Positions 7,261-48,119 of a stretch of 64,000 nt of DNA are shown here, piece by piece. The DNA comes from Viola odorata (Eukaryota > Streptophyta > Magnoliopsida > Malpighiales > Violaceae). Made by a program: the position numbers and the translations under genes. How positions within the stretch are numbered: the first letter of the stretch is position 1; every line of letters begins with the position of its first letter. Under the pieces are notes generated by a model that did no database searches, was not told the origin of the DNA, and saw only the letters and a list, made by a program, of their open reading frames with translations. The stretch spans positions 52,741,002-52,805,001 of the forward strand of contig OY829542.1 in assembly GCA_963691705.1 (NCBI GenBank), given 5' to 3'.

Positions 7261-8359
7261 GAAAAATATCAAGGTGGAGTCGGTTGGTTGCTTGGCCGAG
7301 AATCGCCGGGAAGAAAATATCTTGGGTGATGATGATGCTCTAGGGCGGAATAGTGAGCTAGCTAGGGTTTTTTGTGGCCAAGAATGATCATAGGGGGCTT
7401 GGTGATGATCCAATTGAGGTGGAACCGAGCTGGAGGATAAGATTGCATTGATTGTGCATTAATGTGGTATTTATCCTATTTTTTGGATACGAACGGGATA
7501 TTTTTGTACGAGCGAAATCGCTCGAAAATGAAAATAAATCCGAGCCGAGGGTACAACTATGTGTAGAAAAATAAGGCAAGAAAACTAATATACAGTGAAG
7601 AAATGCGAAAGTTGATTTAACGTATTTATTTTCTCTTTCGGAAGTGTCAAAATGTTCGCGCGCAAAATAAATGTCTTTACGATGAAAATTGAACGAAACT
7701 GAACGCGGTGGCGTGAAAGAGAAAATTAGCACGTCATTATCAAACAAAGAAATAGTGCGTTCGACCCTCGGTCCCGGGAAACTTACTCGGGATCGAAAGA
7801 AGTTCGCGTAAAGACAGTTAAAAATACGAGAAAGTAAAAAGACACGAGATGACACGGAATATTAAACAAACTAGTCTAGGACCAAGAATCGGCAGGAATT
7901 TGACCTAGACGAGTTATTAAATGCGGTAAACATAAAAATATGTACATACGTCGACGAAAACCGAAAAATACAGTTTTAGTCGAAAATACGAGAAAAATAC
8001 GAAAAATTTAAAAGACATGAAATGACATGAAACATTAAAACAAACAGTCCTTGATCAAAAATCGATTGAAATTTGACGTAAACGGGCTATTAATGAAAAA
8101 AAATGAATAAGTTGCGACGTAAGTCAAAATTCGGGTAGCTACAGTATTCTAGCACTATTTAGGGCACGTGTCATCATCCTAGATCATGATGTAGGTAGAT
8201 CATGATCTACCCAATTTTTTCCCCATATTCAAGTATCCAATCAGGAAAAGGTTGAAATAACTATCCAAGTCCAAAGACCTGAAACAACTATAATATGGTC
8301 CAAAATCTACCAGCAAATTTCTATCCGCAGACACTAAATTTACAACAACAAAACCAACA

Positions 8360-10744
8360 ATGGTTTTTTTCCCTATTCCTTTTCTTTTCCTCTTCCTCTC
8401 TCTTCAACCCAACTTGTCCTCAGCAAATGTAACTCTGAGTTCATCCTTAACCACCAACGATAACTCTTTCTGGCCTTCACCGTCAGGCGACTTCGTGTTC
8501 GGATTACGCAAGCTGAACAACTCAAACCTGTTCCTTCTAGCCATTTGGTTCAACAAAATTCCTGACAGAACTATAGTCTGGAATGCAAACGGCAACAACC
8601 CGGCCCCAGCAGGATCAAAAGTTGAGCTCACTGCAAGTAACATTGTCCTGACAGACCCGAATGGCCTGGTGATATGGGATGCACAACCTGCCTCAGCAGT
8701 ATCCTATGGCGCGATGCTCGATTCGGGGAATTTTGTGCTTGCAGGTAATGATTCTTCTACCTATATTTGGCAGAGTTTTAAGAATCCTACAGACACAATC
8801 TTGCCTACCCAAATCTTGGATTTGGGGAGCAAGTTGATTTCTAGAGTGACAGAATTCAACTACTCTAAAGGAAGATTTGGGCTTAGCTTCACTAATGGAA
8901 GTCTCCAGCTCAACCCTATTGCTTGGCCGAGCGATTTTCAGTATGATTTTTACTATAACAGTAGAACTTACAACACCAATCCTTCCGAATCCGGCTATCA
9001 GCTGGTTTTCAATGAGTCTGCAAATATTTACATAGTCAAAATGAATGGAGGAATTTCTCAAATCCCAAGTTGGGATCCTATTAATTACACACAAGATTCG
9101 TATTATCGAGCAACATTAGATTTTGATGGAGTTTTCACACAATATTCTCATCAGAAGAACTCCTCTACGAATCAAGGTTGGTGGCCGATTCAGTCCATTC
9201 CTAGAGACATTTGTACAGCTATTATGCAAGATATCGGTAGTGGCCCTTGTGGGATTAATAGCTACTGCACAATTCAAGAAAACAGGAAACCAATTTGCGA
9301 TTGTCCACCTGGGTATGTGTTGGTGGATCCAAACAACAGACATGGTGGATGTAAACCTACTTTTTTGCACGAGTGTGGAGTAGATGATGCATCGAGAGAT
9401 GCGGAGGAGTTGTTTGAGATTCGAGAGTTTGACGGTGTAGATTGGCCTTTGAATGATTATGAGAGGTTAGTGCCTTATAATCAGAGTGAATGTGAGAAAT
9501 CTTGCTTGCATGATTGCTCATGTGCAGTTGCTATTTTCGAGGGCTGACAGTGTTGGAAGAAGAGATTGCCACTGTCCAATGGAAGATTCAGAATGACAGG
9601 ATTTTCTAGAGTTCTGTTCAAAGCAAGGAAAGGAGCTCCTCCACCAGATTCTCCTGATGTCAGGAATGAGAAAGATAAACCTGTTTTGTTGGGAGTTCTA
9701 TTGGGAAGTTCTGCATTTGGAAATGTTGTTTTGCTTTCTCTTACTTGCCTATTTATGTTCAGGAAGAAACAGAGGAAAGCAGAGAAGGATGTCACTGAAT
9801 CGAGCAGTTTCGAAACGAATCTGCGTTTCTTCACTTATATGGAACTTGTAAAGGCAACAGATGGTTTCAGAGAAGAACTCGGCAGAGGATCATTTGGCAT
9901 TGTGTACAGAGGAGTCCTTAAGTCTGATCCTGAAATTCTCATCGCGGTCAAGAAACTAGACAAGTCAGCGCATGAAACCAAGAAAGAATTCAGGACTGAA
10001 GTGAACGCAATTGGGAAGACTCATCACAAGAATCTAGTCCGGTTGCTAGGCTACTGCGACGAAGGATCCAATCGCCTTCTAGTATACGAATACATGAGCT
10101 ACGGTACTCTTGCAAATTTCTTATTCTCACTTCCAAGACCGAATTGGCAGCAAAGAGTCAAGGTTGCATTAGGCATTGCAAGAGGGCTTCTGTATCTCCA
10201 CGAAGAATGCGACGTCCCCATCATACATTGCGACATAAAGCCTCAAAACATCCTGCTAGACAGCAACCTCTCCGCGAGGATATCTGATTTCGGGTTAGCG
10301 AAACTGTTGCTGTCTGAACAAACCAAGACTCACACAATGATCAGAGGGACAAGAGGGTACGTCGCGCCCGAATGGTTCAAGAACGTGCCGATTACTGCTA
10401 AGGTAGACGTGTACAGCTTTGGTGTGATGCTGTTAGAGATCATTTCATGCAGGAAGAGTGTGGTTATGGAAGCTGAAGAGGACGAAAGAGCGATCCTGAC
10501 AGATTGGGCTTATGATTGCTATGTTGAAGGGAGGATTGATCTTTTGGTGGGTGGTGGCGATGATGAGATGGCATTGGAAGATAAAGAGAGATTAGAAAAA
10601 TGGGTGGCGATAGCTATGTGGTGGATTCAAGAAGATCCTTCAAGAAGGCCTACAATGAAGTTGGTGGTGGAAATGTTAGAAGGGTTTTATCAAGTTCCTT
10701 CCCTTCAGCCTTCAGTTTCTCAGATCGAAACTTTTGGGAGTTAA
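8360..10744 (+). pseudogene. G-type lectin receptor-like kinase, intact except for one in-frame TGA
   Basis: A plasma-membrane receptor kinase of the RLK1/LECRK group, encoded in a single exon of 794 sense-frame codons. It has a hydrophobic signal peptide (1 to about 22) and a B-lectin (mannose-binding-like) domain (about 25-150). A cysteine-rich EGF-like segment (about 285-335) and a PAN-like segment (about 339-410) follow. A membrane helix lies at about 441-467. The Ser/Thr kinase has glycine loop GRGSFG (508-513), catalytic Lys at about 531 (AVKK), HCDIKPQN (623-630), DFG (643-645) and GTRGYVAPEW. HCD instead of HRD makes it a non-RD kinase. Codon 396 (9545-9547) is TGA, inside the PAN-like region just before CWKKRLPLSNGRF, and the same frame continues intact to 10744. 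Translation would stop before the membrane helix and release an ectodomain. It may be a recent pseudogene, a null allele or a base error. The start ATG gives the signal peptide directly. The proximal promoter is short, with the split MITE and LTR ending 140 bp upstream. Confidence 0.88.
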
Positions 10745-19071: not shown

Positions 19072-19899
19072 CTAGCTAACCAATAGCTGCTCGCCATGTG
19101 TATCATTAGTTGATGCCACCTGGTACCCAACCATCCCATTTCCCATTTGCAACCCACTTTGACCAACCACAGCTCCGTGACTATTCTCCACCGCCGGCGC
19201 GGCAACCGCCTTCTTCCGCCTCTTCAGTGACCCATTTCCCGACGACGATGAAGGTTCCGGCGACGACCTTTTCGAGGTCACTCTAACTGGCTCGGGTTCC
19301 CCGGAATTAATTCTCAGAGGAAAATTCAACAACGCCCTTGAACCTCTCATTCTGTAGGCGGCGCGGTCATAAGCCAACGCCGCATCCTCCGCCGTCTCAA
19401 ACGTCCCCAACCACACCCGAGCCCCGTTCTTCGCCGGATCCCGAATCTCCGCCGCGAACTTCCCCCACGGCCGCTGTCTCACACCCCTATAGTGCTTCCC
19501 CTTCGCTGGAACCACCGCAGGCGGCGGTGGTGGCGTCACCGCTGTGGGCTCCGACACCTCCGACAGCTCCGCTTTCACCGCCTGGAAAATGGGTTGCTCG
19601 TAGTTCGGAGATTCGGGTTCGGTCTTGAGAGATGGGACCCAGCCGACGGTGATGGCGTCACGGAGGACGCCGTACAGGAACATGTCCTCGGAATCGTCAA
19701 CTTTTAAAGGCAGTTCACCCCATTTTTCCGTCAAACATGGGTACAAGCTGTTGAAGCTTGAGCTCCGGCAATACATGGGTGTAGCTGTGGTGGTGGCGTT
19801 TGAATTTAGATTTGGAAGTGTGTTTGTTTCGCCTAATAAGTGGTGGCGAATAGAATCTAGGAGAGCAAAATCGGATTCGACAAAGTTTTGCCCGTACAT
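19072..19899 (-). CDS. Ethylene-response-factor type AP2/ERF transcription factor (group IX)
   Basis: A nuclear DNA-binding regulator of 275 residues in one exon. The single AP2 domain (about 136-194) contains [39 protein letters not shown] and [10 protein letters not shown]. Ala and Asp at the two specificity positions (AAEIRD) are ERF-type, so GCC-box binding is expected. The N-terminal [17 protein letters not shown] and the acidic block [23 protein letters not shown] (about 60-82) match group IX activators such as tobacco EREBP-2 and Arabidopsis ERF1A/ERF2. These act in ethylene, jasmonate and pathogen responses. A basic cluster KRRKK (about 225-230) is a probable nuclear signal. I start at the ATG at 19899. 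An in-frame ATG at 20034 would add a hydrophobic unrelated leader and lies upstream of the TATA box. Confidence 0.93.
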
Positions 19900-20013
19900 T
19901 TGCAAAGAAATGAAGTTCTTCCAGTTTTGCAAGTGTTGGATTTGGAAATGGAGTAAAAGAAGAAGAAAGGAAAGGGGTTTTAATTTTTTTGGGTTTTGGG
20001 TCTTAATGGAGGG

Positions 20014-20020
20014 ATATATA
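20014..20020 (-). promoter_or_regulatory. TATA box of the ERF gene
   Basis: TATATAT on the minus strand, within CCCCCTATATATCCCTCC, lies about 115 bp before the chosen ATG at 19899. It supports that start over the upstream ATG at 20034. Confidence 0.55.
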
Positions 20021-20034
20021 GGGGGATGGTTCAT

Positions 20035-22839
20035 TGAACTTAGAGGGGTGAGGATTTTTTTTTAAAAAATAATGAAAAATGAAGTAATGTATTAAATTAT
20101 TGGTGGAGGTATTTTAATTTTTTTAATGGTGGAATTGATTTTCATTGTGTTTCATAGAAATTTCTTAAATGTGGGTTTTAAAACGCACGTGCCTAATTGT
20201 ACGATTTGTTCATGTGTTTAGTATTGTTGAGTCATTTGGTTGATTGGGAAAAGGGGAATGACGTCACGGGTCTCACCTTTCAGGCAGCAAATTGTTGTTT
20301 GTTGCTTTGCTTGTCATTTTGGTTTGCTTTCTAGTCGGCTAGTTTGCCAAATGTGTAAGTGGAAAATAGTGACCAACCAAATTGAAATTTGATTCAGCAA
20401 AATCGATTCATTCAATGATTTTTTTGTTTTTCTTTGTCTATATTTTCAGTCTTCATTTTTTCTTTTTTACATAGACAGATAATTCAAATTCGTTATCCTT
20501 CTTATTTTATAAAAAATATTACTAAATTACAAATTTATCGGTATATTTTAATCTTTTTAAACACTATCGTTTTGCGAAAAGAGTAGTAGTTGCCTTGCCC
20601 GTCCCAATATCATTTGCTCCATGCTTTTGAAGTTCGAATTCAAAACATGAGTTAAAAGTTGATCGTCTTTTATCATTTAATAAAAACTAACACTCACGAT
20701 TTGAATTGTTGTTTTTGCGCTTCCTATAATTTTCTTACACACTAAATTGGATTGAAGTGAATGTTAATTAAGAGCGGGTTGAGATTAAAGGGTGATTAGC
20801 AGGCGATTAATCGGGGAGAAAAGCATGATAATGACGGGGTTTAAAATTTAAACAAGGATTAGGAGGATACATCCAGCCTAGACAGATAGTACAATAATCT
20901 AAGAGCAAGTGGATAAAATAAAGTCGCCAATAAAGTCAATTTGTCCATTATGATAATACCACTCTAGTCTTAAATTCTATGCCCCACATCTTTTACAATG
21001 CCCTCTTTCTTTATAACTCACCTTCAAGGAAAGTGTCATTTTAGTGGAACAATATTTTTACTTCACTAATTATTAATTAACATAGGATTAGCTATAATTA
21101 TTATAGAATCTATATATAATTACTAATTACTAATCCTTCTAAAGCAAAATGGGTGGGGAACAGTGACAATTTTGTTAGTATAATCTTCGTATTCGTAAAA
21201 AAAAAAAAATTAAACCCAAACAAATAATATAGGGTACAAATATTCGTAAAAAATTTGTAATGAAATTTCTAAATATTTAATTTAGTCTCACCTTTGTAAT
21301 ATATTTGCAATCATATAATAATTATGTTACTGTATAAACATAATAACTATATTATTGAAAATCATAACTACGTTACTCCATCCGTTTCATATTACTTGTT
21401 CATTTAAACATAATCATACGTATCAACGTAATAGTTAATTTCGGTTACAAATATACTTCAATAATTACTCTATTTTAAATTGATCAATCCAAAATTAATA
21501 TATTTTAAATTGTTAAATTAATTGAATTGGATTTTATAATTTATAAAAAAGATTAAAAACTACCGACTAACAGCATCGGAAATGAAAAATGGACGACTAC
21601 AAAAAATTGCAAATTATGTCTATTAAAAAAAAAAAATCCACAGAGTAGGCCAAATATCTTAGTCTTATCTATAGCCAATAGCGGACAAATTAGCCAGCGA
21701 ATCCCTTAACCGTTTAGTGGTTTAAAAAAAATGTTAGCTATTAAATGAAGTACTTTTTTTAAAGGGGAATTATTAGAATACTTGAAATTAATGGTACTTT
21801 AAATGTGTTAAGATAACCACTAACTAACGATGTTTATTTTGTTGTCCAGAGTATCCGATAATTTAATTATCATATTAAATATCGATTATTCAAATTTAAA
21901 TGACACATAAGATAAAAAAAAGGCATTGTTATCTCGTTACGTTTGATAAGCCGGAAGAAAGACAAAATAAAAACATATTCTTTGAATTAATAGTGATGAT
22001 TAAGGATATTTTTGTAAGAAGAACAAGAGTTGATATTAATACACCCTTGATTTTAAGTTTTAATCTTAAGAATGAAGTAAAACTAGCTTTGATTATAAAA
22101 AGCACCCATTTTTTAAGGGCCACTCATGGCCTTACGCGTGCTGTGCATTTGTGCACGCATCCATTGCTGTGTGTAATGTACTAGTAAGTTGACATTATCA
22201 AGATTCTCTAGTCCCTGTTTTGTTTTCTTGCTGCTGCTTTAGTGTTTTCTGTTGGATCCTGATAATGATACGTGGCATGGCAGCTGTGGCAATTGGAGAC
22301 ACTTCTTTTACAAAAGGACACGCATCTAAGCTACAGTCAAGCCCTCAGCATACACAAGCAAGGCCTTGAGCCAGAACTTACCCGACATCAATTAAGAGAA
22401 CACTAAACTATATATATTTAGTAAGTTTGTGACGTGATATTCTTATATTTAACAATTTAAAAAGATGAATATCTCAAAAACAATTCGTTTTCAAAATCGT
22501 TAACGCTGATGTGGAGGGATGGAGTTGTGATTTCATGGGATGTCTCCGAAACGGAAGAAGTTGTGATTTTATTGGTAGGTGACATATAGACAGTCGTGGC
22601 CTCTTTTCCCATCTTGTTGTTGTTGTTTAGGATTTGCGGCCTTAGTTTAATTAAAATTAGTAGTCGGCAAAAGGAAGATATGCACTAACACTTAACCGCA
22701 GCAATCGTCCTCATTCCCATTAATGATGCACGTCATTTGTCACATATTTAATTCGCAACTTGTCTTTTCTCTGTTCTGCCATCTTTTTCTTCTCTTTTAA
22801 TTTTGCCCCACATACCACCGGTTGTGCTGCAATTTGCTA
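20035..22839. other. Intergenic AT-rich DNA, no gene recognised
   Basis: This is the upstream region of the ERF gene and beyond. A lone Stowaway-like end (TTACTCCATCCGTTTCATAT at about 21373) has no visible partner. A 94-codon plus-strand frame at 21900-22184 has no recognisable motif. Nothing else can be supported. Confidence 0.5.
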
Positions 22840-23099
22840 CTCCCTCTGCCACGAATTAAATGACTTCCTCGCATCTCAATATTCAGTAGGGAACGCATAT
22901 TGAAGAGGCCGAATGACTCATTATTTGACCCCAAAAAAATTCGTACTTTTTTTCGAACGTACGTTAATCCTTAACGTACTTTCGAGAAAAAATTAGGGGC
23001 AAAATTGTCTCAAATAGTGGCTGTTCCAGCCGTTTTAAGATACGTGTCGAAACAATAAAAGCAAATGCTAAAACGTCATTTAATTCGGACCGGAGGGAG
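22840..23099. mobile_element. Stowaway-type MITE, 260 bp (copy A)
   Basis: Starts CTCCCTCTGCCACGAATTAA and ends AATTCGGACCGGAGGGAG, with TA on both sides (22838-22839 and 23100-23101). Its interior matches the element at 32084-32343 in reverse orientation. For example, CGCATCTCAATATTCAGTAG here pairs with CTACTGAATATTAGGATGCG there. Confidence 0.85.
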
Positions 23100-23101
23100 T
23101 A

Positions 23102-24708
23102 ATTGCTAGCTACTCTCCTTTCCTTTTCTTCTTAACAACTCACTTACTAGTTTTTTTTTAAGAGTCTGATGTTCGAATTTGAATCTAATGTTTCATTTAT
23201 TTTGAGAAAATAATTTGTTTGAGAGAAATAGTTTTTCGTGGAATCTAATTTCTTAAAAAATGGATTATTTTTTGTTGTTTGATTGTTTAACTGGAAAATA
23301 TTTCCGGTATTTGGATGCAGTAAGAAAATGATTTCTTGAAAAGTTATTTTCTCGTACTTTATACAGTACTAGTCGAACCCTTGTGCACGCGAGATTATGA
23401 ATTATTGTAAGGTTCTAAAAATATATTCACAATATATAGTATATACTACAATATATGCTATGATACACCATTTTATTAATAGATGTGTCGGTTGTAATAA
23501 TCACATAATTTTCATTAGATTTTTTCGTTGTAAAAGACATACATTTTTATATTACATTCTTTCATCAATACATGTATTTGTTTGTAGCAATACATCCTTT
23601 GAATTAATATTAATATTTTTTTAAAATTTAAATTATCATCAAGTGTACCAAAATACTAAAACATAATGATATTTACTTAGACATCTTAAAATTATTTCTT
23701 ACATTTTTGTGCTTCTGCTTTATAGTAGTAGTATAGAATATAAATAATATCTTTTTTTAATAATTTATAAGATAAAACAGTTATGCACATTTTAAACAAT
23801 TTTTTAGAGCAAGTATATAATTAAAGTTATGATAATACAAATAATTTAATTTTATATATTTACTTCTATATTAATTATAAAACTTCTAAATTAATTTAAA
23901 ATATATTTAAATTTTGAATGGTGCCATATTTCATGGTCTGGTTTATGCCATGAACAAGTAAACCATGAGTAGCCATTGAAAGTATAAAACCGATTTATGA
24001 AAGATTAAAAAAAAAAGGGTATGGAATTAATTACCTTGGAGATTATGATTTTATAATTTTTATTTTGATTTGATCACTTTATAAAGAGATGGGATCTAAT
24101 GTGATAATGAGAAAGAAAAAGGAATTAGGAGAACGATAAGAGAAACAAAGGGGAAAGGTTGAGGAAAATGATTTCGGGCCATTGTTGGGGGAACTTGTTT
24201 TCTCTAAATTTGCTACTTTTTTTCCTTTCACAGTAAGTTGTTTTCCTCGACCCCGTCTCATTTTCCAGCACCAAACATTGAAAAATAAGGGGAAAAGACT
24301 TCTAGGAAAATGATTTCCCAAAACAAACGAGGCATAAATTTTTATTGATGTTTTTGCCATCAGTAAAATAATTACTCTCTCTAGTATATTATTTGTCTTT
24401 TTTTTTATTCAACCGTCAAAACTAAGGAAGTAATTATGATGTTATTTTTTTTGATATATTTATCCTTGTAATCTTGAAAAAATATCGCATTTGATTATCA
24501 TTAAGATTGTTAATTAAATTCATATTAAGTAGTGATTGAGTAAGATTACACTAAGATTTACCTAAAAAGAAGAAAACCGACTAATAATTTCAATAAAAAG
24601 AAAATGTCTAAAATGACAAGTAATATAGAAAAGAGAGAGGAATAAATTACATACTAGTTACTACCCCTTTCTTGTTCTTTCAACAACTTTGTATTCGATT
24701 TAACTATG
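23102..24708. other. AT-rich DNA with possible unassigned MITE remnants
   Basis: Motifs such as GAAAATGATTTC occur at both sides (about 23326 and 24167, also 24306). This hints at an inverted-repeat element, but I could not define termini or a target-site duplication. No gene is recognised. Confidence 0.4.
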
Positions 24709-24718
24709 TTTCCTCAAT

Positions 24719-25622
24719 GGGTTAATGAAATAAATGGTACCTACACTCGTTTACGTGTATTGATTTTTCCCTTCATCTCATTTTCGGTCACATTTGACAC
24801 TCGCACTTGAATGATCGTTCACATTTGGCCCATCATAGTGACGCCGTCAAACACATTCCGTTAAGTGTTCGACGTGGCATGACACATCAGATGCCACGTG
24901 TAATTTTGCTGATGTGTCATACACGTCAGCAAAATTGACCCGAAGTTTAAAAAACGGGTTTGGGTAAACAGGTTCCTAAATATTAGAGGAACCTGTTTTC
25001 CTCCCAAAAGCGACGTCGTTTGGGAGAAGCTCCCAGCTCCCAGGATCCACATCCATGTAGCCCACAAAATCGACAACAACATTTTCCTAACCAACGACTT
25101 GCCGTCTCCGTCACTATATCGCCAAACCATCGACGACGACCAAGACCATAAAGCCACCAAACCCCGCTGTTTCTCCTCCACTTCAGCCAGCTCCTCATCC
25201 CTATCACCGTCAATATCCTTCTCACCGATAAATGTTGAGAAGCTTATCCACCTCGTTCCTCTCCTCACACTCTTCTGCTTCCTCGTCCTCTGCCTTGTCT
25301 CTCATCATCCCATCCAAACAGGTCCTTCGATTATTAATTAGTTTATTTCCCTCTCACCATTGACATGAATCTTGTAATAATCAATGATAACATCCGCACC
25401 AATTTTGTTTTTATGACTTTGTTGCTCTGATTGGAGAAGATGGAAGAAGCGATGTCGTTTGGCAAATTGGAGAAGATGGAAGAAGCGACGTCATTTTGGA
25501 AGAAATTGCACTGGATCAGAAGCGACGTCATTCTGGAAGACATTGCTGAAATTGGTGGATTGTAGACTCGTTTACCCAAAACAGTCTCACTCTCACTCTC
25601 ACTCTCACTCTAACCCATAGAC
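24719..25622 (+). repeat. Left terminal inverted repeat of the Mutator-like element
   Basis: It pairs with 29450-30348 on the opposite strand. It contains a palindromic CACGTCAGCAAAATTGACC region, a coding-like stretch (about 25095-25340, +) and a CTCTCA repeat near the inner end (about 25585-25612). Similarity fades just inside ACTCTAACCCA. Confidence 0.85.
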
Positions 25623-26135
25623 TGCATTTTCCCCCAACTCTCTTTCCCCAAAATTGTAGACTACATCGCGTGCGTGTTGAATTTGATCCACCGCATCTGA
25701 TTTGACGATCCAATCGACTGCATTGCGTGCGTGTTGACTTCATTGGAGGAGGCGACTGTATTGTTGCTATTCGGGCATGGATTGAATTATGATGGGTCGG
25801 GTTTTGGAGGTTGGGTTTGCGTAAAGCAAGACAGTGATTGGTCGAGTCTAGAGGTTGGGTTGTCGTAAAGTGAAGACAGTGACAGGTAATAGATTCGATT
25901 CTTGTCTTCCTTTTCTCTTACAATTTTATATGTTTACTGTATTTAGAGTTTGTGGTCCAACAACTTTAAACCAATTGTTATCTTGGAATAATTAAACTGT
26001 TGTCTTTTATGTAGTCCTTCTGTCATATATCTTGGAAGAGTTAGTGGAAGAGATAAGAATGGAAATTGGCAGAAGAGTAGAGGTGCATATAAATATTAGT
26101 ATGACATAGAGGAAAGTTGTTGAGGAGAAAATGAG

Positions 26136-27330
26136 GTGTCTTTTGAGAGTGACAAAGAGGAAAGTTTCTTGACATCCAACAGTGAAAGTGAGGCAGAACA
26201 TGGCAGGAGGGTTCCCTATAGAAGGCCTCGGTTCAAAACAGGTGAGAAAATTTTAGAATTTTCAGTTTGTATGGTGTTTCCTAACAAGAGTGAGTTTAAA
26301 AAAAGTTATGGTGAGACATGCAATACACTTCAGAAGAGATGTGAGGTTCACCCAAAATGATAAAAAAATGTGTAGAGTTGTATGTAAGAATAGTGAATGT
26401 GAGTGGAGAATTTTATTCTCAATTGATGAGAGGAGCAAACAATGGATGGTTAAAATATATGTAGGCCACCACAGTTGTCAAAACTAGTTCCACATCTCTT
26501 GTCTCAATTACAAAATTCTAGCTGAGTAGTTTATTTATAATCTAAGGAAAGTTACATTGAAACTGAGTCTAATGGAAATGAAAGACAATTTCAATGGGCA
26601 GACCAAGATCAAAGTGTCTAAAGGGCAATGTAGGCATGCTAAGTAGAAAGTAATTGAGCATTATATTGGTGATCCTTGAAGGAGTTCGCTAGGTTGGAAG
26701 ATTATGTTGAGGAACTTAAAAGGAATTATCCTGGTAGCACAATAGGCACCACATGGAATATTCAAGAGGATGTATGTTTGTTTTGATGGTTCAATACTGC
26801 TTGCAGAATGATAATTGGACTGGATGGTTGTTTTTTCAAGGGACCATTTAAAGGTGAAATTCTTGCTACAGTTGGTAGAGATCCAAATGACCAAATCTAC
26901 CCAATTGCCTGGGCTGTTGTGGGATATGAGTAGAAGGAAAATATGGAAATGGTTCTTAGATTTTCTCATGGTGGACTTGGATGTTGCTGGAGGAAACTAA
27001 ATTTATGCTTCAGATAGTGCTCCTGTTATTGCTCGAGGAGAAGGTTTCACCTTCATGTCTGATCAACAAAAGGTATTTGACCTATTGATTTTATTCTTTT
27101 TACTTTGGAAACTTATGAAAATATGTATCTTAACTTATTGATTTTAATATGTAGGGATTGCTTTTTGCTATTAATGAACTGATGCCATCAGCTATTAGTA
27201 GAAGATGTGTCAGACACATTTTTGCCAAGTGGAGGAAAGAACACAACAGTGTGGCTTTTCAGATACAGTTTGGAGAACTTGCAGGGTATCCACGACACCA
27301 GAGTTCCTTGCTGAACTGGAAGTTTTAAAA
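26136..27330 (+). pseudogene. Decayed MuDR-type transposase
   Basis: The first part carries the N-terminal DNA-binding domain of MuDR transposases, read across two frames. VCMVFPNKSEFKK joins, after an A-run at about 26298-26304, to RHAIHFRRDVRF, NDKKMCRVVCKNSECEWRI and GHHSCQN. The catalytic MULE domain follows as MIIGLDGCFFKGPFKGEILA and VGRDPNDQIYPIAWAVVGYE (about 26808-26930). After a probable intron (GT at about 27074, AG before 27155) comes GLLFAINELMPSA and RRCVRHIFAKWRKEH. Several stops (for example 26486, and the TAG after VVGYE at about 26930) and frameshifts make it inactive. Its family role is to cut and move the element by its terminal inverted repeats. Confidence 0.85.
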
Positions 27331-28880
27331 GGTATGTTCATAACAAGACCTTAAGCAATATCTGAGTTTTAAGAGATCCCTCCAATTTTCTGGTGCAAAA
27401 CCTTCCAGAATACATCATGTTGTTCTGATGTACTAGATAATAAAATGAGTGAGACATTTAATAGTCTGATAATAGAGTCTAGGTATAAAAGTATTGTTAA
27501 AATATTTGAGACCATTTGTAAGATAGTGTTCAAGTGCAAGCTTCTCAGGTGTCTATTGCGCAAGAGTCAATTGCACAAGTGTCAACTACACCACTACTTG
27601 ATATAGCACAACAACTATTGCAAGAACTCAGACTATCATGTGGCACTGCTGGAGCTACTAAAGGGAGAAAAAAAAAAGGTGTCTGCAAAAAAAAAGGGTA
27701 AACTTCCAAGAGGTTTAGGATGTTTTGTTGCATAATCAAGGTGGACTTGCTATGATGTGAGTTTCATAATTTTTTTGGTCTTTAGAGCTACTAATTTTGT
27801 CTATCTATAAATTATAGTATAATACTTTGTGATATTGCATTGTACTATGCAACCTAAAACCCCACAACAAAAGGTCATTGATGTCCCAAAAAGAAGAAAG
27901 ACAATGGATGTCACAGGAAGAGGTACAATTGTGGAAGACCACCTTGCAAGAGTGAGAGCTGAGAATGACATTTTGGGTAGTTAGGGCTCCAATGTTGGAG
28001 CTGGGACTTCAAGAAAATAGTAATCTGGGGTGAAATGGAAACATAGGGTTTGCTTGGTTTCTCACTTAAGTAGTAATCAGATAGGTTTTAAGGTAAATTG
28101 AACAGTAATTACTTAACCTCTCTTTGTCCTATGTTTCAATCTCTCCCTAGAATACCAAAATCTAGGGTGAAATGGAAACATGTGGAGTTTTTATTGGGTT
28201 TTTGTTTTCACTTAAGAAGGCAGTCATGAAGTAACCAATATACTCGTCGCTTTTTGTCAAACTACACAAAATTTACGTTCATGACTACGTTCATGGCTTC
28301 GAGAAAATAGCCATGTGGTCACCCATGAAAATAATATATTTTTCATAATTTTGTTTAGTATTTTAAATTTAGTTATGCTAGTATGGTCAAACAGTACAAA
28401 AAAACTACACCATAAAAAAACTCCATTTTTATTTACATTGCAAAGTAGTATAACTCATTCAACAACTTCATGCTACACTGACACTGAATATAGCCAAGGA
28501 GTTCTAAACAAATAACTAAGAAGATACGTTGAATCAAATATAATCTTCACCATAAAGTCCAAAAATTCACAGTATTTCAGTAAGAACTAACCTTGGCTAA
28601 TACAAAATAGAAGCAGACACTAGAGTGGAATGCAGAGCAAGATTGTCAAGAAAGGGTTTACTCAGCTTCTTGTTCTTATATCAGTTATAACAATCACAAA
28701 CTGTGACTGCAACATGAACCATGCCATTTCTGAAAATATCCAATCTAAAAATTCTAGAAATATAACAAATTCTGGAAATCTAACAAATCAATCTAAAAAT
28801 ATTAACCATTTCTGAAAATCTTCCTCATTACAATTTGGAAATCTAATACATCACCATTTTTTTAATAATCGGCCACATGC

Positions 28881-29393
28881 TTAATTGAATAAAGTCAAAT
28901 ATCCAATTACAAAAATAATAAAGGAAAAAATGGCTAGTATCAACCTCAATTTCTTTACCATTTTCGTCAGATAATCATTTTCATCCTTCAAACTGAGCAA
29001 CTCATCCACCATGCCATTGAAAACCATGTCCCGCATCTTCAATTCTTTATTTTCGTCAATAATTGCTCGATTCTCTAACTTTAGTTTTCTGTTTTTAGCC
29101 ACTAGATTCTCAATCTTCTCCACTTGTTCCTTCTCACTTTCACACAGACCTATAATAATTGCACGAGCTCTATCTGGGAAAGGAGAATCAATGAACTGAT
29201 AATAGCCACATCCACCCTCGTCGACGCTGCGCTTGCACTTGTTGAATCGAAGCCCGTGATTCCTCTTTGTCTATGAAATCCATCTGGATATCTTCTCTCC
29301 GCACCAGTAGTAAATACTTGGCTTGTGATCGTAGTTTGACTTCTGCTTCAACACCGAGCTAAACTTCTCACCACTTTCTTCTATCTTCACCAT
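28881..29393 (-). pseudogene. GRF-type zinc finger, coiled coil and C-terminal membrane segment (element-borne)
   Basis: From the ATG at 29393 the minus strand reads 171 codons with one internal TAG (codon 40, about 29274-29276). After it come NHGLRFNKCKR, CGYYQFIDSPFPDRAR and IIIGLCESEKEQVEKIENL. The WCGE, KCK, GGCGYYQF spacing is that of a plant GRF-type zinc finger. A heptad-rich coiled coil follows (ENLVAKNRKLKLEN through LKDENDYLTKMVKKL). A final hydrophobic helix (LILAIFSFIIFVIGYLTLF) looks like a tail anchor. Many such small GRF proteins are annotated in plant genomes. Here the gene lies inside a Mutator-like element, antisense to and downstream of the transposase. Nucleic-acid binding is inferred from GRF fingers elsewhere. 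The TAG probably kills this copy. Confidence 0.78.
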
Positions 29394-29449
29394 TTCAGCT
29401 TCGTGCGGCTAGGTTTGGGAGAGGAGAGTTAGGGCCTACAATCCGCTAT

Positions 29450-30348
29450 ACAGACAGTGGGTTAGAGTGAGAGTGAGAGTGTTTTGGGTAAACGAGTGTA
29501 CAATCCACTTCTGATCCAGTGCAATTTCTTCCAAAATGACGTCGCTTCTTCCATCTTCTCCAATCCTCCAAACGACGTCGCTTCTTCCATCTTCTCCAAT
29601 CCACCAAACGATAAGATCGGAGCAACAAAGGCATAAAAACAAAATTGGTGCGGATGTTATCATTGATTATTACAAGATTCATGTCAATGATGAGAGGGAA
29701 ACAAACTAATTAATAATCGAAGGACCTGTTTGGGTGGGATGATGAGAGACAAGGTAGAGGACGAGGAAGCAGAAGAGTATGAGGAGAGGAACGAGGTGGA
29801 TAAGCTTCTCGGCGTTTATCGGTGAGAAGGATATTGACGGTGATAGGGAAGAGGAGCTGGCTGAAGTGGAGGAGAAACGACGGGGTTTGGTGGCTTTTTG
29901 GTCTTGGTCGTCGTCGATATTGTCGATGGTTTGGCGATATAGTGACGGAGACGGCAAGTCGTTGGTTAGGAGAGTGTTGTTGTCGATTTTGTAGGCTACA
30001 TGGATGTGGATCTTGGGAGCTGGGAGCTTCTCCCAAACGACGTCACTTTTGGGAACCTGGTTTTTAGGAAAACGGGTTCCTCTAATATTTGGGAACCCGT
30101 TTACCCAAACCTCTTTTTTTAACTTCAGGTCAATTTTGCTGACGTGGCATGACACGTCAGCAAAATTACATGTGGCATTTGACGTCATGCCATGTCGAAC
30201 ACATAACGGAATGTGTTGGACTGCGTCACTATGAGGGACCAAATGTGAATGATCATTCGAGTGCGAGTGTCAAATGTGACTGAAAATAAGATGATGGGCC
30301 AAATCAATATACTTAAGCGAGTATATGTACCATTTATTTCATTAACCC
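29450..30348 (-). repeat. Right terminal inverted repeat of the Mutator-like element
   Basis: It is the reverse complement of 24719-25622 with scattered substitutions and small indels. It contains the same palindromic CACGTCAGCAAAATT segment and the same coding-like stretch on the minus strand (about 29706-30000). The inner end is the GAGAGTGAGAGTG repeat at about 29465-29480. Confidence 0.85.
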
Positions 30349-30358
30349 TTTCCTCAAT

Positions 30359-32066: not shown

Positions 32067-32083
32067 TGTGTATCTACGTATTA

Positions 32084-32343
32084 CTCCCTCCGGTCTGAAA
32101 TATATGACGTTTTAGCATTTACTTTTACTGTTCCAGAACGTATCTTAATACGACCGGAACAGTCACTATTTAAGATAATTTTGCCCCGAATTTTTTCTCA
32201 GAAGTACGTTAAGGATTAACGTACGGTCGAAAAAAAGTACGGAATTTTTTGAGGTCAAATAATGCATCATCCGACCTCCTCGATATGCGTTCTCTACTGA
32301 ATATTAGGATGCGAGGAAGTCATACATTTCGGATTAGAGGGAG
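32084..32343. mobile_element. Stowaway-type MITE, 260 bp (copy B, inverted relative to copy A)
   Basis: Starts CTCCCTCCGGTCTGAAATAT and ends CATTTCGGATTAGAGGGAG, with TA on both sides (32082-32083 and 32344-32345). It has the same length and interior as 22840-23099 but in reverse orientation. Confidence 0.85.
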
Positions 32344-32345
32344 TA

Positions 32346-41853: not shown

Positions 41854-41886
41854 TTGTTTCAAGACTGATTTATTTTTCTTGTTTGT

Positions 41887-43545
41887 ATGACCAGGAGATC
41901 TGCACCCGAATTACTGCCCCTTGATCACGAGCTTGGACGAACCGAAAGAGGACTTCGACGACTAGCACGAGGAGACTCCAACCCTTGTGTTCGGGACCTC
42001 GAACGTCTTTTTAACCTGGAAGATAGTCCAGACCCCGAAAACCTACCCCCGGTCTACCCAGAAAGACCTGATATGGATAATCCCGGTCCCGAAGGGAATG
42101 CTGTTAACCTGCACCCCCCACCAATCCAGACCATCGATGATTTCAATGCCGCTCCCGAAGCCCCAACCAGTTGCATTGTCTGGCCAGCAGTCCCGAATGA
42201 CTGGGAACTCAAGTCTGCAACCATGCATCATCTGCCACTCTTTCGAGGGCTGGCCAAGGAGAATCCACACCGCCACCTACAGCAGCTACACTCCATTTGC
42301 GACGCCATGAAGCCTCACAACGTTTCGGTTGAGCATGCCAAGCTTCGTGCCTTTATGTGGTCCCTCAAGGACGACGCTCTTGACTGGTTTTATGATTTGC
42401 AGCCGCAATCTATCAATTCATGGGCCGAGATGTCTAAGGCTTTCACGGATAAATACTACCCCGTGTCCATAGCAATGGTGACCCGAAAGCAGCTTGTATC
42501 CATCCTCCAAAAGGATTCGGAAGACCTTGAGCAATACTATGAGCGGTTTAAGAAGATGCAAGCCCTATGCCCCTCGCATAATCTCTCCGAACATGCCCTC
42601 ATGCAGTATTTTTGTGAAGGACTCAACGGTCGGGACAAGGCCTTGTTGAACGCTGCCGCTAATGGATCCATCACTAGACTCACTCCAGCTGCTGCCAAGG
42701 CCACTATCGAACTCATGGCCAAGAACAACCTCCAGCTCAACAACTCCACTAGCGTTCAAGACGCCCGTTCAGCCGCTATGGAGAATCAACTTGCAGCCAT
42801 CACGGGCATGTTGCAAAACATGGCTTCCGGACAGCCAGTCCAGGTCAAGGCCTGCCAGATTTGTCAATTTTCAGACCACCCAACGGATGCTTGCCCATTC
42901 ATCCCCGATGAGATTCCAGTCAATGCAGCTGGCGGATTCAATGCCCCATATGGCCAACACCACAATCAAGGGTGGAAGCAACCTAACTATGGATGGAACA
43001 ACAACCAGCAGGCCGGACCTAGCCATCAGTATGGACAAAATCCATACGGAAATCACCCCCCTCCTTTCAACATGCAAGCCTTCAAGCCCAGGCCCAATTT
43101 TCAGAATTACCAGTACCAGAGGCAGCCTCCCCCAGACCAGAATTTCACCATGCCACCGCCCCCGAATGAGGACCCCTCCCCCGATAAAAAGAAAATCGCA
43201 GAGCTGGAAAAACAGATTCGGACCCTCATGGCCGAAATGAAAGAAGTAAAAAATGGAGGGAGATTTCCAGGGCAGACAGAACCTAACCCAAAGCATGAAG
43301 CGTGTGCCATGAACCTCCGCAGTGGCCTCGAGATCCCTTCTCGTGTCCACCCAGGCCCCGAAGCCGATACTGCTCTTCCTGATCCCGAAGTCGACGATAC
43401 TGCACCACCACCTCCCGAACAACCTACTGACCAGCCCAAGAAATCCCGATTTGGCGACGCAGCTCTGGACCATTTCTTCTCAAGTACAAAATCTCGCTGT
43501 AAGCAGAAGAAGAAGCAGCCCATCGAGGAGGAAGAATTCTCTTGA
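41887..43545 (+). CDS. Athila Gag polyprotein region
   Basis: A structural capsid/nucleocapsid protein of 552 residues, ending at TGA. The capsid (retrotransposon gag) domain lies at about 118-265, with HHLPLFRGLAKENPHRHL, KLRAFMWSLKDDALDWFYDL and FTDKYYP. A CCHC-type knuckle, CQICQFSDHPTDAC (about 326-339), is the nucleic-acid-binding part. A Gln/Asn/Pro-rich linker follows, then a coiled stretch (IAELEKQIRTLMAEMKEVKN) and the family motif CAMNLRSG. The next codons after the TGA continue the same frame (EFINKVFEPPFPQR), which relatives have as part of a gag-pro fusion. The stop is therefore probably a mutation, although programmed readthrough cannot be excluded. The start follows the primer-binding site by 33 bp. 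Confidence 0.9.
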   Translation: MTRRSAPELLPLDHELGRTERGLRRLARGDSNPCVRDLERLFNLEDSPDPENLPPVYPERPDMDNPGPEGNAVNLHPPPIQTIDDFNAAPEAPTSCIVWPAVPNDWELKSATMHHLPLFRGLAKENPHRHLQQLHSICDAMKPHNVSVEHAKLRAFMWSLKDDALDWFYDLQPQSINSWAEMSKAFTDKYYPVSIAMVTRKQLVSILQKDSEDLEQYYERFKKMQALCPSHNLSEHALMQYFCEGLNGRDKALLNAAANGSITRLTPAAAKATIELMAKNNLQLNNSTSVQDARSAAMENQLAAITGMLQNMASGQPVQVKACQICQFSDHPTDACPFIPDEIPVNAAGGFNAPYGQHHNQGWKQPNYGWNNNQQAGPSHQYGQNPYGNHPPPFNMQAFKPRPNFQNYQYQRQPPPDQNFTMPPPPNEDPSPDKKKIAELEKQIRTLMAEMKEVKNGGRFPGQTEPNPKHEACAMNLRSGLEIPSRVHPGPEADTALPDPEVDDTAPPPPEQPTDQPKKSRFGDAALDHFFSSTKSRCKQKKKQPIEEEEFS

Positions 43546-46500
43546 GAATTCATAAACAAAGTCTTCGAGCCCCCATTCCCTCAGCGGTTGATCAAAAAGA
43601 AGAAAGAGGAAGAAGATCGGGACATCTTTGAGATGTTTAGCAAGGTTGTCATCAATATTCCGCTCCTCAAGACCATCAAGAACATGCCCCGATATGCCAA
43701 GTTTTTGAAGCAGCTGTGCACCAACAAGAACAAATTCACTGAGGTGAACAGAATCAGTGTGGGAGCTAATCTATCCGCCCACATCCAACGAAAAATTCCA
43801 CCCAAGTGCAAAGACTAGGGCATGTTCACGGTCCCGTGCAGGATCGGGACTATCGATATCGGGAAAGCAATGTGCGACCTGGGGGCTGGGATTAATGTTA
43901 TGCCTCTGACCATCTACGACAGCCTCGGACTCGGGCCCTTAAAGGAAACCACTCTGGTAATCCAACTTGCAGACCGTTCGGTAGTATATCCCAAAGGAAT
44001 CATCACGGATGTTCTGGTCCAGATTGGTGAATTCTTATTCCCAGCAGATTTCTATGTTCTCTCCATGGAAAACCCCATGAACACCAAGTCTTCGGACCTA
44101 CTCTTGGGACGTCCTTTCTTGGCTACTGCCCGCGCAAAGATTGACTGCTATGAAGCCTCGATATCCCTCGAGTTCGACGGGGAAATTATCCGTTTCAACA
44201 TGCTAGACTCCATGAAGTACCCTCCCGAATTTTCCAGTGTCAATTTTGTTGATATAATAGATCCCCTTGTGGAGGAGGTTGCTGAACTGAATTCCGTCGA
44301 GCCCTTGAAACTGATTCTTGACCGAAGTCTCACCCCCGAATCTCTGCAAGAGATGACAGCTTCCATTACGGTCCCATCTGAACTAGGCACAGTTGCGGCA
44401 GCCCTCGAAGAAAATTCTGCTCTGGTGGTTGAACCCCCGAGCGATTCTCCCGAATGCGCAGATCATGTACGAGTTCCACCATCTCTGGAACAAGCCCCAG
44501 ACCTCGAACTCAAAACACTGCCCTCACACTTGAAGTATGCATACCTCGGGGAGGGAGAGTCGCTTCCAGTCATAATTTCCAACAAGTTAGAAGCAGACCA
44601 AGAGACTGAGCTCGTGGACCTCCTCCAGAGTTTCAAGAAGGCTATCGGATGGACGATCGCCGACATCAAGGGACTGTCACCATCCTTATGCACTCACCGC
44701 ATACATCTTGAAGACGACTCCAAGACAGTGAGACAGCCTCAAAGGCGTTTGAACCCCCCCATGATGGAGGTGGTCAAGAAAGAGATCTTGAAGCTACTCG
44801 ATGCCGGAGTTATCTATCCCATTTCTGATTCCCCATGGGTTAGCCCAGTTCAGGTGGTCCCAAAGAAAACTGGCATCACAATCATTCCAGGTCCCGAGGG
44901 TCAGCCAATCCCCTCCCGAATCCAGAATGGCTGGCGTGTCTGCATTGATTATCGACGCCTGAACGAAACCACCCGAAAAGACCATTTCCCACTTCCCTTC
45001 ATAGATCAGATGCTGGAGCGCCTTGCGGGCAAGACACATTATTGCTGCCTGGATGGGTATTCGGGATTCCACCAGATTCCAGTAGCCCTTGAAGACCAGG
45101 AGAAAACCACCTTCACGTGCCCCTTCGGGACCTTTGCTTACAGACGCATGCCCTTTGGGTTATGCAATGCCCCGGCCACATTCCAGAGGTGCATGGTCAG
45201 CATCTTTTCAGAATTTGTAGAAGAATGCATCGAGGTATTCATGGATGACTTCACGGTCTATGGTAACTCCTTTTCCGAATGCCTCTTGAATTTAAAGAAA
45301 ATTTTGCAAAGATGTATAGAAACAAACCTTGTTCTTAATTTCGAAAAATGTCATTTCATGGTTGATCAAGGACTAATCCTGGGCCACATCGTGTCCCGAA
45401 AGGGTATCGAAGTGGACAAGGCCAAAATTCAAGCTATCGAGACCTTGCCTTACCCCTCGAATATTCGAGACGTGCGCTCTTTTCTTGGACATGCAGGTTT
45501 TTATAGGAGGTTCATCCGGGATTTCTCCAAGATTGCCCAGCCAATGTGCCAATTACTACACAAGGATGTGGACTTCGTATTCGATGACCAGTGCAAGAAG
45601 GCATTCGAGACTCTGAAAGCTAAGCTCATTTCTGCTCCTATCATTCGAGCCCCCGACTGGACACTCCCGTTCGAAATCATGTGCGACGCAAGCAACCAGG
45701 CTTTGGGAGCTGTTCTGGGTCAGAAGAAAGCCAAGGAGACTTATGTTATTTATTATGCCTCCAAGTTGTTGGATCCCGCCCAACAAAACTATACAACAAC
45801 AGAAAAAGAGCTTCTGGCCATTGTCTATGCCCTTGACAAGTTTCGGCAGTACCTCCTGGGCACAGAAGTGATAGTGTACTCTGACCACTCCGCTCTTCGA
45901 TGCCTGCTCAAGAAGACAGACGCGAAGCCTAGGCTTATCCGCTGGATTCTCCTGCTTCAAGAGTTCAACCTAGCCATCAAAGATAAAAAAGGGACCGAAA
46001 ACTGTGTAGCTGATCATTTAAGTCGACTCCCACATCAAGAAGACGACTCCCAAGTAACCATTCGGGAGTCTTTCCCTGATGAGCATTTGTGCTCAGTTGA
46101 CATGGCCAAATACCCCTGGTTCACGGACATAGCTAATTATTGTGCCACTGGTGCGCTCCCAGTCGAGGCCTCGAGTGCAGAACATAACCGAATCCGCAAA
46201 CAAGCCAAGTACTATGTTTGGGACAACCCTTACCTATGGAAACATTGTTCAGATCAGATCGTTAGGCGATGTGTCTCCACAGACGAGGTCTCATCCATCC
46301 TCAAGTTCTGCCATTCAACAACCGAAGGGGGACATTTTGCTGCAAAGAAGACCGCACTCAAAGTCCTAGAAGCGGGTCTTTACTGGCCCTCCATCTTCAA
46401 GGACAGTTATTTATTTTGTGCAGCATGCCCTCGATGCCAAGCCATGGGAAATATCGGAGCCCGAAACCAAATGCCCTTGACCAGTATCATTGCATGCGAT

Positions 46501-47398
46501 ATTTTCGATATTTGGGGCATTGACTTCATGGGACCGTTCCCGAGTTCATTCGGACATACGTATATTCTGCTTGCAGTAGATTATGTCTCCAAATGGATCG
46601 AAGCCAAGGCCACCAAAACTGACGATTCAAGGGTGGTCGCCGATTTTCTCAGAACACACATCTTTAACCGATTCGGGACACCTCGAGCTCTCATCAGCGA
46701 TCGGGGGACTCATTTCTGCAATCGAACAGTCGCATCGCTACTTAACAAGTATGGAGTGACTCATCGAGTGTCCACAGCTTACCACCCCCAAACCAATGGG
46801 CAGGCTGAGGTCTCGAATCGGGAGATCAAGGCTATCCTAGAAAAAACAGTGAATCAGTCCAGAAAAGATTGGAGTCTCAAGCTAGGAGACGCGCTTTGGG
46901 ACCCCGATCGGCATGACGCCATATCGGTTGGTCTATGGCAAACCGTGTCACCTTCCGGTCGAAATAGAACACAAGGCCTTCTGGGCACTCAAGAAAGTCA
47001 ACATGGACTTGAATTTGGCAGGAAAGGAACGTTGTTTGCAAATTCAAGAGCTTGAAGAACTTCGGGGGAACGCCTATGAAAATTCCTTGATCTACAAGGA
47101 CAAGACCAAAGCCCAGCACGACAAGCACCTCGTAGTCAAAAACTTCACCATTGGGCAGAAAGTTTTGCTCTACAACTCAAGACTACGGATTTTTTCGGGC
47201 AAGCTCAAGTCCAAATGGACGGGACCATACCGAATCACTGCAGTATTTGATCATGGAGCTGTTGAGATCCAGAACCTGGATAAGGGTGAGCCATTTAAAG
47301 TGAACGGTCACAGGTTGAAACCTTTCTATGAAGGATTCAAGCCTTCGACTGCAGAAGAAGCAAGGGTCGAGGACCCAGCAATCCACACTCCCGAATGA
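43546..47398 (+). pseudogene. Athila pol: protease, reverse transcriptase, RNase H, integrase (broken)
   Basis: In frame with gag, the frame crosses a TAG at 43816-43818, then runs open to about 46905. The aspartic protease has the active-site variant [11 protein letters not shown]. Reverse transcriptase (about 44690-45300) has [22 protein letters not shown] and the FMDD catalytic motif (about 45235-45246). RNase H has [13 protein letters not shown] and YSDHSALR. Integrase shows an HHCC finger (about 46310-46450) and the three catalytic acidic residues in [17 protein letters not shown] and the SNREIK region. Near 46902-46912 about 20 bases are missing relative to the family pattern. The integrase C-terminus therefore continues in another frame (46913-47398, [17 protein letters not shown] to the stop). 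Enzyme production from this copy is unlikely. Confidence 0.9.
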
Positions 47399-48119
47399 GG
47401 ACACGACGTCCAGGCCTGGACGATAATCAAGGCCAATGTGGGGACAAGCCCCGAATTTCTAACCCTCTTCCTTTAATTTTCTTGTCTCTTAATTCTGCAA
47501 CCAAAACCCTCTCTTCTCTCTTCCCAAAGCCCATTCCTTATCTTCCCTAGGTGGTTTTAATTTGTCCTGTCCATTCTCATTCCTTTTGTCCGTTGGTTTC
47601 TTTAGTTTATTTTTATTTCCATTTTTTTTTATTCGAGTCAACTCTAGCTTTTTGAATTTTTTTTTTTATGTGCACTTTTTATGTTACCTAGGTAAATTTT
47701 GAATTTTCTTTGTCCTCTTTCCCTCTCATTTAATTTTTATACCTCTCCCTCTCTCCTATTTAATGCCTTGTCCCCTCCTTTATCATCTCCCATTTAATTG
47801 CCTCTGATTTTATTCTTATCTCTCCTCTTTCCCACATCCCAAAAGCTGATTTGCTTTCTCTGATTCCCGTGCAGGTGTAAGAGCACGCTGCCCATGGCAC
47901 TTAGCGCCCTCTCCCATCACGCCACGTGGACAACGGAGACCGAAGCGTCAGTTCCCGCCTCTCTCTCCACGTTGCCACGCCTGCCACAACCTACTCACCC
48001 ACGCCACCTAAACCGTCACCCTTCCACGTTACCCAACCAAAACCCCCTCATCACTCCCAATCAAATCAAAACACCTCTTTTTCTCTTCTTTCCAAAAACG
48101 AAACCCTCTCTTCTTCCTT
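47399..48119 (+). other. pol-to-env spacer with a likely splice acceptor
   Basis: Pyrimidine-rich DNA (about 47460-47870) ends in TTCCCGTGCAG (acceptor at about 47874), followed 245 bp later by the envelope-position ATG. A polypyrimidine tract plus CAG just before that ORF fits expression from a spliced subgenomic RNA, as proposed for Athila-like elements. The donor is not identified. Confidence 0.5.

What the first reader, a model, noticed from the sequence alone, without database searches (positions are those of the whole stretch)
28881..29393. Antisense GRF zinc-finger, coiled-coil, tail-anchor ORF carried by the Mutator-like element
A small protein with WCGE...KCK...CGYYQF, a heptad coil and a C-terminal hydrophobic helix sits inside the element, opposite to the transposase. 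It is neither MuDR transposase nor the maize mudrB product as far as I can tell. If other copies keep it intact, it may be an accessory factor of the transposon, for example nucleic-acid binding at the nuclear envelope. It could also explain the many orphan GRF genes in plants.
Basis: partly seen in the sequence, partly recalled or inferred. Interest (0 to 1): 0.75.

Follow-up and report, generated by a model that had tools for sequence, protein, structure and literature searches.

The report
Dead zinc-finger gene inside plant transposon
A decayed plant jumping gene carries, next to its broken transposase and pointing towards it, the remains of a small zinc-finger protein with a membrane-like tail; that a jumping gene carries it is interesting, but this copy is dead and it is not known whether other copies keep it.

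Summary
The stretch lies in a Mutator-like element (MULE), 24719-30348, with perfect 10-bp target-site duplications and inverted repeats of about 0.89 kb. On the minus strand, 68 bp inside the right repeat, a 170-codon frame encodes a GRF zinc ribbon, a linker typical of small plant GRF proteins, a predicted long helix and a C-terminal hydrophobic segment. A profile of 41 GRF-type proteins, built without the ORF, scores it 57.8 bits (E 1.7e-16); the best of 1000 shuffles scores 8.0.

This copy is dead: one in-frame stop inside the finger, Tyr at the first zinc-ligand column, 8 of 23 conserved positions lost. The transposase is broken too.

The two genes are convergent and, as far as recognisable, do not overlap: the layout of mudrA/mudrB in maize MuDR. 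Whether other MULE copies carry an intact GRF gene under selection could not be answered, as no plant DNA beyond the window was reachable. One printed 'GRF domain-containing gene' inside a grass MULE exists, read there as gene capture.

Verdict: a MULE-borne pseudogene of a known plant family in the mudrB position; accessory function plausible, unproven.

The parts
24709..24718 (.). left target-site duplication, 10 bp
   Evidence: identical to 30349-30358, directly abutting the inverted repeat ends
24719..25602 (+). left terminal inverted repeat of the MULE
   Evidence: 795 of 852 aligned bases identical to the reverse complement of the right arm, 74 gap positions
26124..27981 (+). remnant of a MULE transposase gene, in several frames with stops; extent beyond 26930 read by eye
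   Evidence: DBD_Tnp_Mut at 26257-26484, E 1.1e-6, 28.6 bits; weak MULE-domain match at 26787-26930, E 0.12; read through as a whole frame the DBD scores 23.2 bits, below its cut-off of 25, and no other Pfam family appears; frames read
28881..29393 (-). GRF-family pseudogene: 170 codons from ATG at 29393, terminal stop at 28881-28883, one stop inside
   Evidence: 57.8 bits with a profile of 41 GRF-type proteins; 59.4 bits with the 32 of them that carry Pfam GRF, 37.6 bits with the 16 of those least like the ORF
29187..29309 (-). GRF zinc ribbon, residues 29-69; 3 of 4 ligand columns are Cys
   Evidence: alignment columns; strands 36-39, 49-52, 65-67 in the model
29271..29273 (-). in-frame stop, codon 41, inside the finger
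29142..29186 (-). linker residues 70-84, matching the family motif PPMCxRAxxIIPGLL
   Evidence: consensus of A3; profile alignment
28944..29141 (-). long polar helix, residues 85-150, possible coiled coil
   Evidence: helix 74-169 in the model; heptad test not significant
28887..28943 (-). C-terminal hydrophobic segment, residues 151-169, possible tail anchor
   Evidence: mean Kyte-Doolittle 2.7 over 19 residues
29461..30348 (-). right terminal inverted repeat; the GRF start codon lies 68 bp inside it
30349..30358 (.). right target-site duplication, 10 bp

Best explanation
It is a dead copy of a MULE whose second gene, convergent to the transposase and abutting the right inverted repeat, encodes a member of the plant small-GRF family (GRF zinc ribbon, IIPGLL-type linker, long helix, hydrophobic tail). 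Shown: the element, the family resemblance, the layout, the decay. Inferred: the gene was transcribed from a promoter in the right inverted repeat, as mudrB is in MuDR. Its ancestor was most likely a host GRF gene that the element picked up nearly whole and kept for a time as its second gene. When intact, the product would bind single-stranded nucleic acid with the ribbon, pair or cluster through the helix, and sit on the nuclear envelope or ER by its tail. There it could hold excised or gapped transposition intermediates, or shield them from host surveillance. This copy makes no such protein.
For: Clean MULE with 10-bp TSD. Mutator DNA-binding domain, E 1.1e-6. ORF 57.8 bits with a GRF-family profile that excludes it, 1000 shuffles at most 8.0; still 37.6 bits, E 3e-10, with the 16 least similar of the 32 Pfam-annotated relatives. 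The match continues past the finger into the family linker. A model built on 36 aligned rows, the stop read as Q, has three strands plus one long helix, mean pLDDT 84.5, pTM 0.40. NEIL3 GRF is the top Foldseek PDB row, though not significant (E 0.18); a family profile that includes the ORF finds NEIL3 GRF at 3.1e-11 and an APE2-type GRF at 0.005. GRF fingers of NEIL3 bind single-stranded DNA (PMC9266487, passages). MuDR inverted repeats are promoters for mudrA and mudrB, and mudrB is needed for integration (PMC8224964, passages). Abermu MULEs carry a convergent ORFR between ORF1 and the 3' repeat, Ka/Ks 0.39-0.56 in three pairs (PMC9168764, passages).
Against: Only one copy was seen. It has an inner stop, lacks one zinc ligand and keeps 15 of 23 conserved positions (65%), less than any of the 41 relatives (minimum 70%), so it may have been decaying since it arrived. 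MULEs often pick up host genes that do nothing for them. Osa_Abermu, which lacks ORFR, appears to have moved recently (stated as data not shown in PMC9168764, passage). Nothing here tests transcription, binding or location. A direct phmmer of the ORF against the PDB found no GRF chain, a database search with the ORF alone found no relative, and the Pfam GRF score is below cut-off.
Confidence: 0.5

Rival explanations
1. One-off capture: this single element swallowed a host GRF gene (Pack-MULE-like), which never served the element and decayed. The layout next to the inverted repeat is a by-product of how MULEs acquire genes.
For: MULE capture of host genes is widespread in plants (PMC6446971, passages). 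A 'GRF domain-containing gene', GLU-U7, was reported inside a MULE (TNR12/MuDR) and read as capture of a gene fragment (PMC3503983, passages). The copy is broken. The transposase body is strongly CpG-depleted (5 seen, 58.4 expected) and the GRF ORF is not (14 against 16.7), as if the two had different histories.
Against: The frame is full length from ATG to hydrophobic tail, not a fragment. The CpG pattern has another reading: 25603-26123 beside the left repeat also keeps most of its CpG (15 against 19.7), so the position near the repeats may explain it.
Confidence: 0.4
2. Unrelated reading frame: a chance ORF with a chance GRF-like motif.
For: 8 of 500 shuffles give as long a frame with one stop. 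The Pfam match alone is below cut-off. The heptad test failed.
Against: 57.8 bits with a family profile against at most 8.0 for 1000 shuffles; 37.6 bits with the 16 least similar Pfam-annotated relatives; the linker and the tail also match.
Confidence: 0.02
3. Host GRF gene that was already at this site, with the element's parts around it by nested insertion.
For: The 41 relatives are listed as proteins without surroundings, so free host genes of this family are possible here.
Against: A single pair of 10-bp TSDs and paired repeats enclose transposase and GRF alike.
Confidence: 0.05

Closest known systems
Plant small GRF-type zinc-finger proteins (Pfam PF06839; names such as 'zinc finger, GRF-type'; that Arabidopsis At4g04775-like proteins belong to the same group is recalled, not from a call)
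   Same: GRF ribbon, DPPMCxRxxxIIPGLL-like linker, C-terminal hydrophobic segment (30 of 41 relatives)
   Different: 18-35% identity in the alignments; first zinc-ligand column is Tyr here; inner stop; carried by a MULE, while the surroundings of the relatives are not known here
Maize MuDR, second gene mudrB
   Same: second gene opposite to the transposase gene, starting next to the other inverted repeat (PMC8224964 and PMC9168764, passages)
   Different: the MURB sequence was not compared (none at hand); repeats are about 200 bp in MuDR against about 0.89 kb here
Abermu MULEs, ORFR
   Same: opposite ORF between transposase and 3' repeat in the type II elements, fast-evolving, function unknown (PMC9168764, passages)
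   Different: 'GRF' occurs 0 times in that paper's main text; sequences not compared
MULE clades with an antisense PMD ORF (PMC6446971, table passage; that PMD means plant mobile domain is recalled)
   Same: extra ORF opposite to the transposase
   Different: GRF ribbon instead of PMD; 'GRF' occurs 0 times in that paper's main text
GLU-U7, 'GRF domain-containing gene' in a TNR12/MuDR element (PMC3503983, passages; an Oryza species by its label, my inference)
   Same: GRF-named gene inside a MULE
   Different: read by its authors as capture of a gene fragment; the passage does not say whether GRF means the zinc finger or growth-regulating factor
GRF fingers of NEIL3 and APE2
   Different: DNA-repair enzymes, not small helix-and-tail proteins (from general knowledge)

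Membership tests
Mutator-like element (MULE) | 8-11 bp target-site duplication | tested here: met
   10 of 10 bp identical at 24709-24718 and 30349-30358
Mutator-like element (MULE) | long terminal inverted repeats | tested here: met
   about 0.89 kb, 795 of 852 aligned bases identical
Mutator-like element (MULE) | MULE transposase | tested here: met
   PF03108 DBD_Tnp_Mut 28.6 bits in the piece 26257-26484, above cut-off 25, 23.2 bits in the whole read-through frame; PF10551 only E 0.12, below cut-off, in a 48-aa piece; gene broken, catalytic residues not tested
Plant small GRF family | GRF zinc ribbon sequence | tested here: met
   57.8 bits with the family profile; Pfam alone below cut-off
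Plant small GRF family | four cysteine zinc ligands | tested here: not met
   3 of 4 in this decayed copy, so it is called a pseudogene of the family and not a working member
Plant small GRF family | linker, long helix, C-terminal hydrophobic segment | tested here: met
   30 of 41 relatives have the segment
Plant small GRF family | coiled coil | tested here: inconclusive
   helix predicted but 1896 of 10000 shuffles match the heptad score
MULE accessory gene (mudrB-like) | convergent second gene starting beside an inverted repeat | tested here: met
   ATG 68 bp inside the right repeat, minus strand
MULE accessory gene (mudrB-like) | present and conserved in several copies of the element | not testable with these tools
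   genome search unanswered in all 14 tries; no plant DNA collection open
MULE accessory gene (mudrB-like) | needed for transposition | not testable with these tools
   needs an active element
MULE accessory gene (mudrB-like) | sequence similarity to MURB | not tested
   no MURB sequence at hand

The most novel reading that the evidence does not exclude
A lineage of plant MULEs carries a GRF-helix-tail protein as its standing second gene: a membrane-anchored single-strand-binding factor that acts on transposition intermediates at the nuclear envelope. The many small GRF genes of plants are then largely copies spread by, or descended from, such elements.
Probability: 0.2. Interest if true: 0.75.

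Novelty: new variant of a known kind. Interest (0 to 1): 0.42.

Why it matters
Extra genes opposite the transposase recur in plant MULEs (mudrB, ORFR, PMD) and the roles of several are unknown, though mudrB is needed for insertion. If a GRF protein is one of them, a testable activity (single-strand binding and membrane anchoring) attaches to this puzzle, and a poorly explained plant gene family gets a possible source. If it is a one-off capture, it is an ordinary Pack-MULE story.

Tried and rejected

Rejected: a chance motif. A mudrB homologue is neither shown nor excluded, as no sequence was at hand. CpG as proof of late capture: the pattern also fits mere distance from the repeats.

The ORF and baits were left out of the profile, and the result stood with the 16 least similar of the 32 Pfam-annotated relatives. 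Still, the choice of relatives is not wholly independent of the ORF; the Pfam match is. The contrast of conserved with variable columns is no test of selection: conserved columns are easier to match by their definition.

Those joining 'GRF zinc finger' with Mutator-like (7), GRF-type with MULE and transposon (22), 'zinc finger GRF-type' with transposable (44) and 'GRF-type zinc finger' with Mutator (65) found no paper. zf-GRF with MULE (8) found one NEIL paper, by its title unrelated. 'GRF zinc finger' with transpos (21) listed nine, seen as a listing only. One search held 134 papers with at least 2 of 3 terms, of which 15 were listed; it led to PMC3503983. At4g04775 (15) listed two papers, not opened. 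The library holds open-licence papers only.

Full report
What is there. Between 24719 and 30348 lies a 5.6-kb Mutator-like element. Its ends are inverted repeats of about 0.89 kb, 795 of 852 aligned bases identical with 74 gap positions, and a perfect 10-bp duplication flanks it (24709-24718 and 30349-30358). The interior holds on the plus strand the wreck of a transposase: the Mutator DNA-binding domain PF03108 at 26257-26484 (E 1.1e-6) and a weak piece of the MULE domain at 26787-26930 (E 0.12), in different frames and with many stops. Read through as whole frames, only the DNA-binding domain is found, at 23.2 bits.

The GRF frame. On the minus strand, from ATG at 29393 to a terminal stop at 28881-28883, 170 codons read through with one inner stop at codon 41. 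Its start is 68 bp inside the right repeat. It ends about 0.9 kb short of the last plus-strand frame that I read by eye as transposase tail (to 27981), so the two genes appear convergent without overlap. Frame length is only moderately unusual: 8 of 500 dinucleotide shuffles of the interior do as well with one stop allowed, and 42 of 500 for the stop-free piece.

Family. Pfam GRF alone is sub-threshold (13.8 bits, E 0.064). I searched a protein collection with an alignment of the ORF and two typed baits and got 41 proteins with E up to 0.01; 32 have Pfam GRF annotated, 35 name an organism and all 35 are plants, 6 are unnamed. A profile from these 41, without ORF or baits, gives the ORF 57.8 bits (E 1.7e-16); the best of 1000 shuffles scores 8.0 and the best other frame of the window 6.6. 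With the 32 Pfam-annotated proteins the score is 59.4, and with the 16 of these least like the ORF it is 37.6 bits, E 3e-10. The match runs past the finger into the linker (consensus DPPMCxRAxxIIPGLL); the Pfam match itself ends at residue 70. 30 of the 41 relatives carry a hydrophobic segment in their last 50 residues, as the ORF does. 6 of 23 members of A2 also match DUF730 at E up to 0.1.

Decay. Besides the stop, the first of four zinc-ligand columns holds Tyr (Cys in 21 of the 22 aligned relatives). Of 23 columns conserved at 80% or more in the 41 relatives the ORF keeps 15, and in 68 variable columns it has the commonest residue in 19 (Fisher p 0.0024). The relatives keep a median of 96% and a minimum of 70% of those columns. 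So the frame descends from a working protein, but this copy has lost function. How much of the divergence came before the decay cannot be told from one copy, and the contrast of columns is not a test of selection.

CpG pattern. The transposase body has 5 CpG where 58.4 are expected, 27982-28883 has 7 of 23.2, the GRF frame 14 of 16.7, the repeats 39 of 41.5 and 40 of 41.2, and 25603-26123 beside the left repeat 15 of 19.7. This may mean that the middle was long methylated while the ends were not, or that the GRF part is a later arrival.

Comparison with what is known. MULEs with a second gene opposite the transposase are known. MuDR has mudrB, needed for integration, with promoters in the repeats (PMC8224964, passages). 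Abermu has ORFR, of unknown function and fast-evolving (PMC9168764, passages). Several clades have an antisense PMD ORF (PMC6446971, passages). A GRF-named gene inside a grass MULE was reported and read as capture (PMC3503983, passages); there GRF may mean something else. My searches found no paper that joins the GRF zinc finger with MULE second genes, within an open-licence library and without opening all listed papers.

Judgement. Identity, layout and death of the copy are well supported. Whether the gene is a standing accessory gene or a passenger is open, roughly even. The test that decides it, other copies in the host genome, could not be run because the genome search did not complete (14 tries) and no plant DNA collection was open.

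Noticed in passing
29709-30269 (-) and 24913-25338 (+): Both inverted repeats hold an inward-facing frame with a Ser-rich stretch and a strongly hydrophobic segment (EKLIHLVPLLILFCFLVLYLVSHHP in the right one); no Pfam family above cut-off. It may be a host gene piece captured into the repeat and present in both arms.
   Followed up: partly
26124-27981: Extreme CpG depletion of the transposase body (5 seen, 58.4 expected), not shared by the repeats or the GRF frame.
   Followed up: partly
22838-23113 and 32070-32345: Inverted pair, 85% complementary over 276 nt, each arm itself with inverted ends (TACTCCCTC...): looks like two copies of a MITE on either side of the MULE.
   Followed up: no
41869-50108: Gypsy-like LTR retroelement frames (by eye) with an extra 698-aa frame at 48012-50108 downstream of pol that weakly matches Pfam Transposase_32, a 'putative plant transposon protein' (E 0.00035, below cut-off).
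   Followed up: no
8294-10744: Two adjoining frames of a lectin receptor-like kinase: B_lectin, then protein kinase.
   Followed up: no
19072-20061 (-): Ethylene-response-factor gene with an AP2 domain; the best-ranked row is 68% identical and unnamed, the next three name Manihot, Salix and Jatropha, so the host is probably a eudicot, perhaps a rosid (inference).
   Followed up: partly
60515-61063: Tandem-repeat region open on both strands, with a repeated motif of about 21 residues seen by eye.
   Followed up: no
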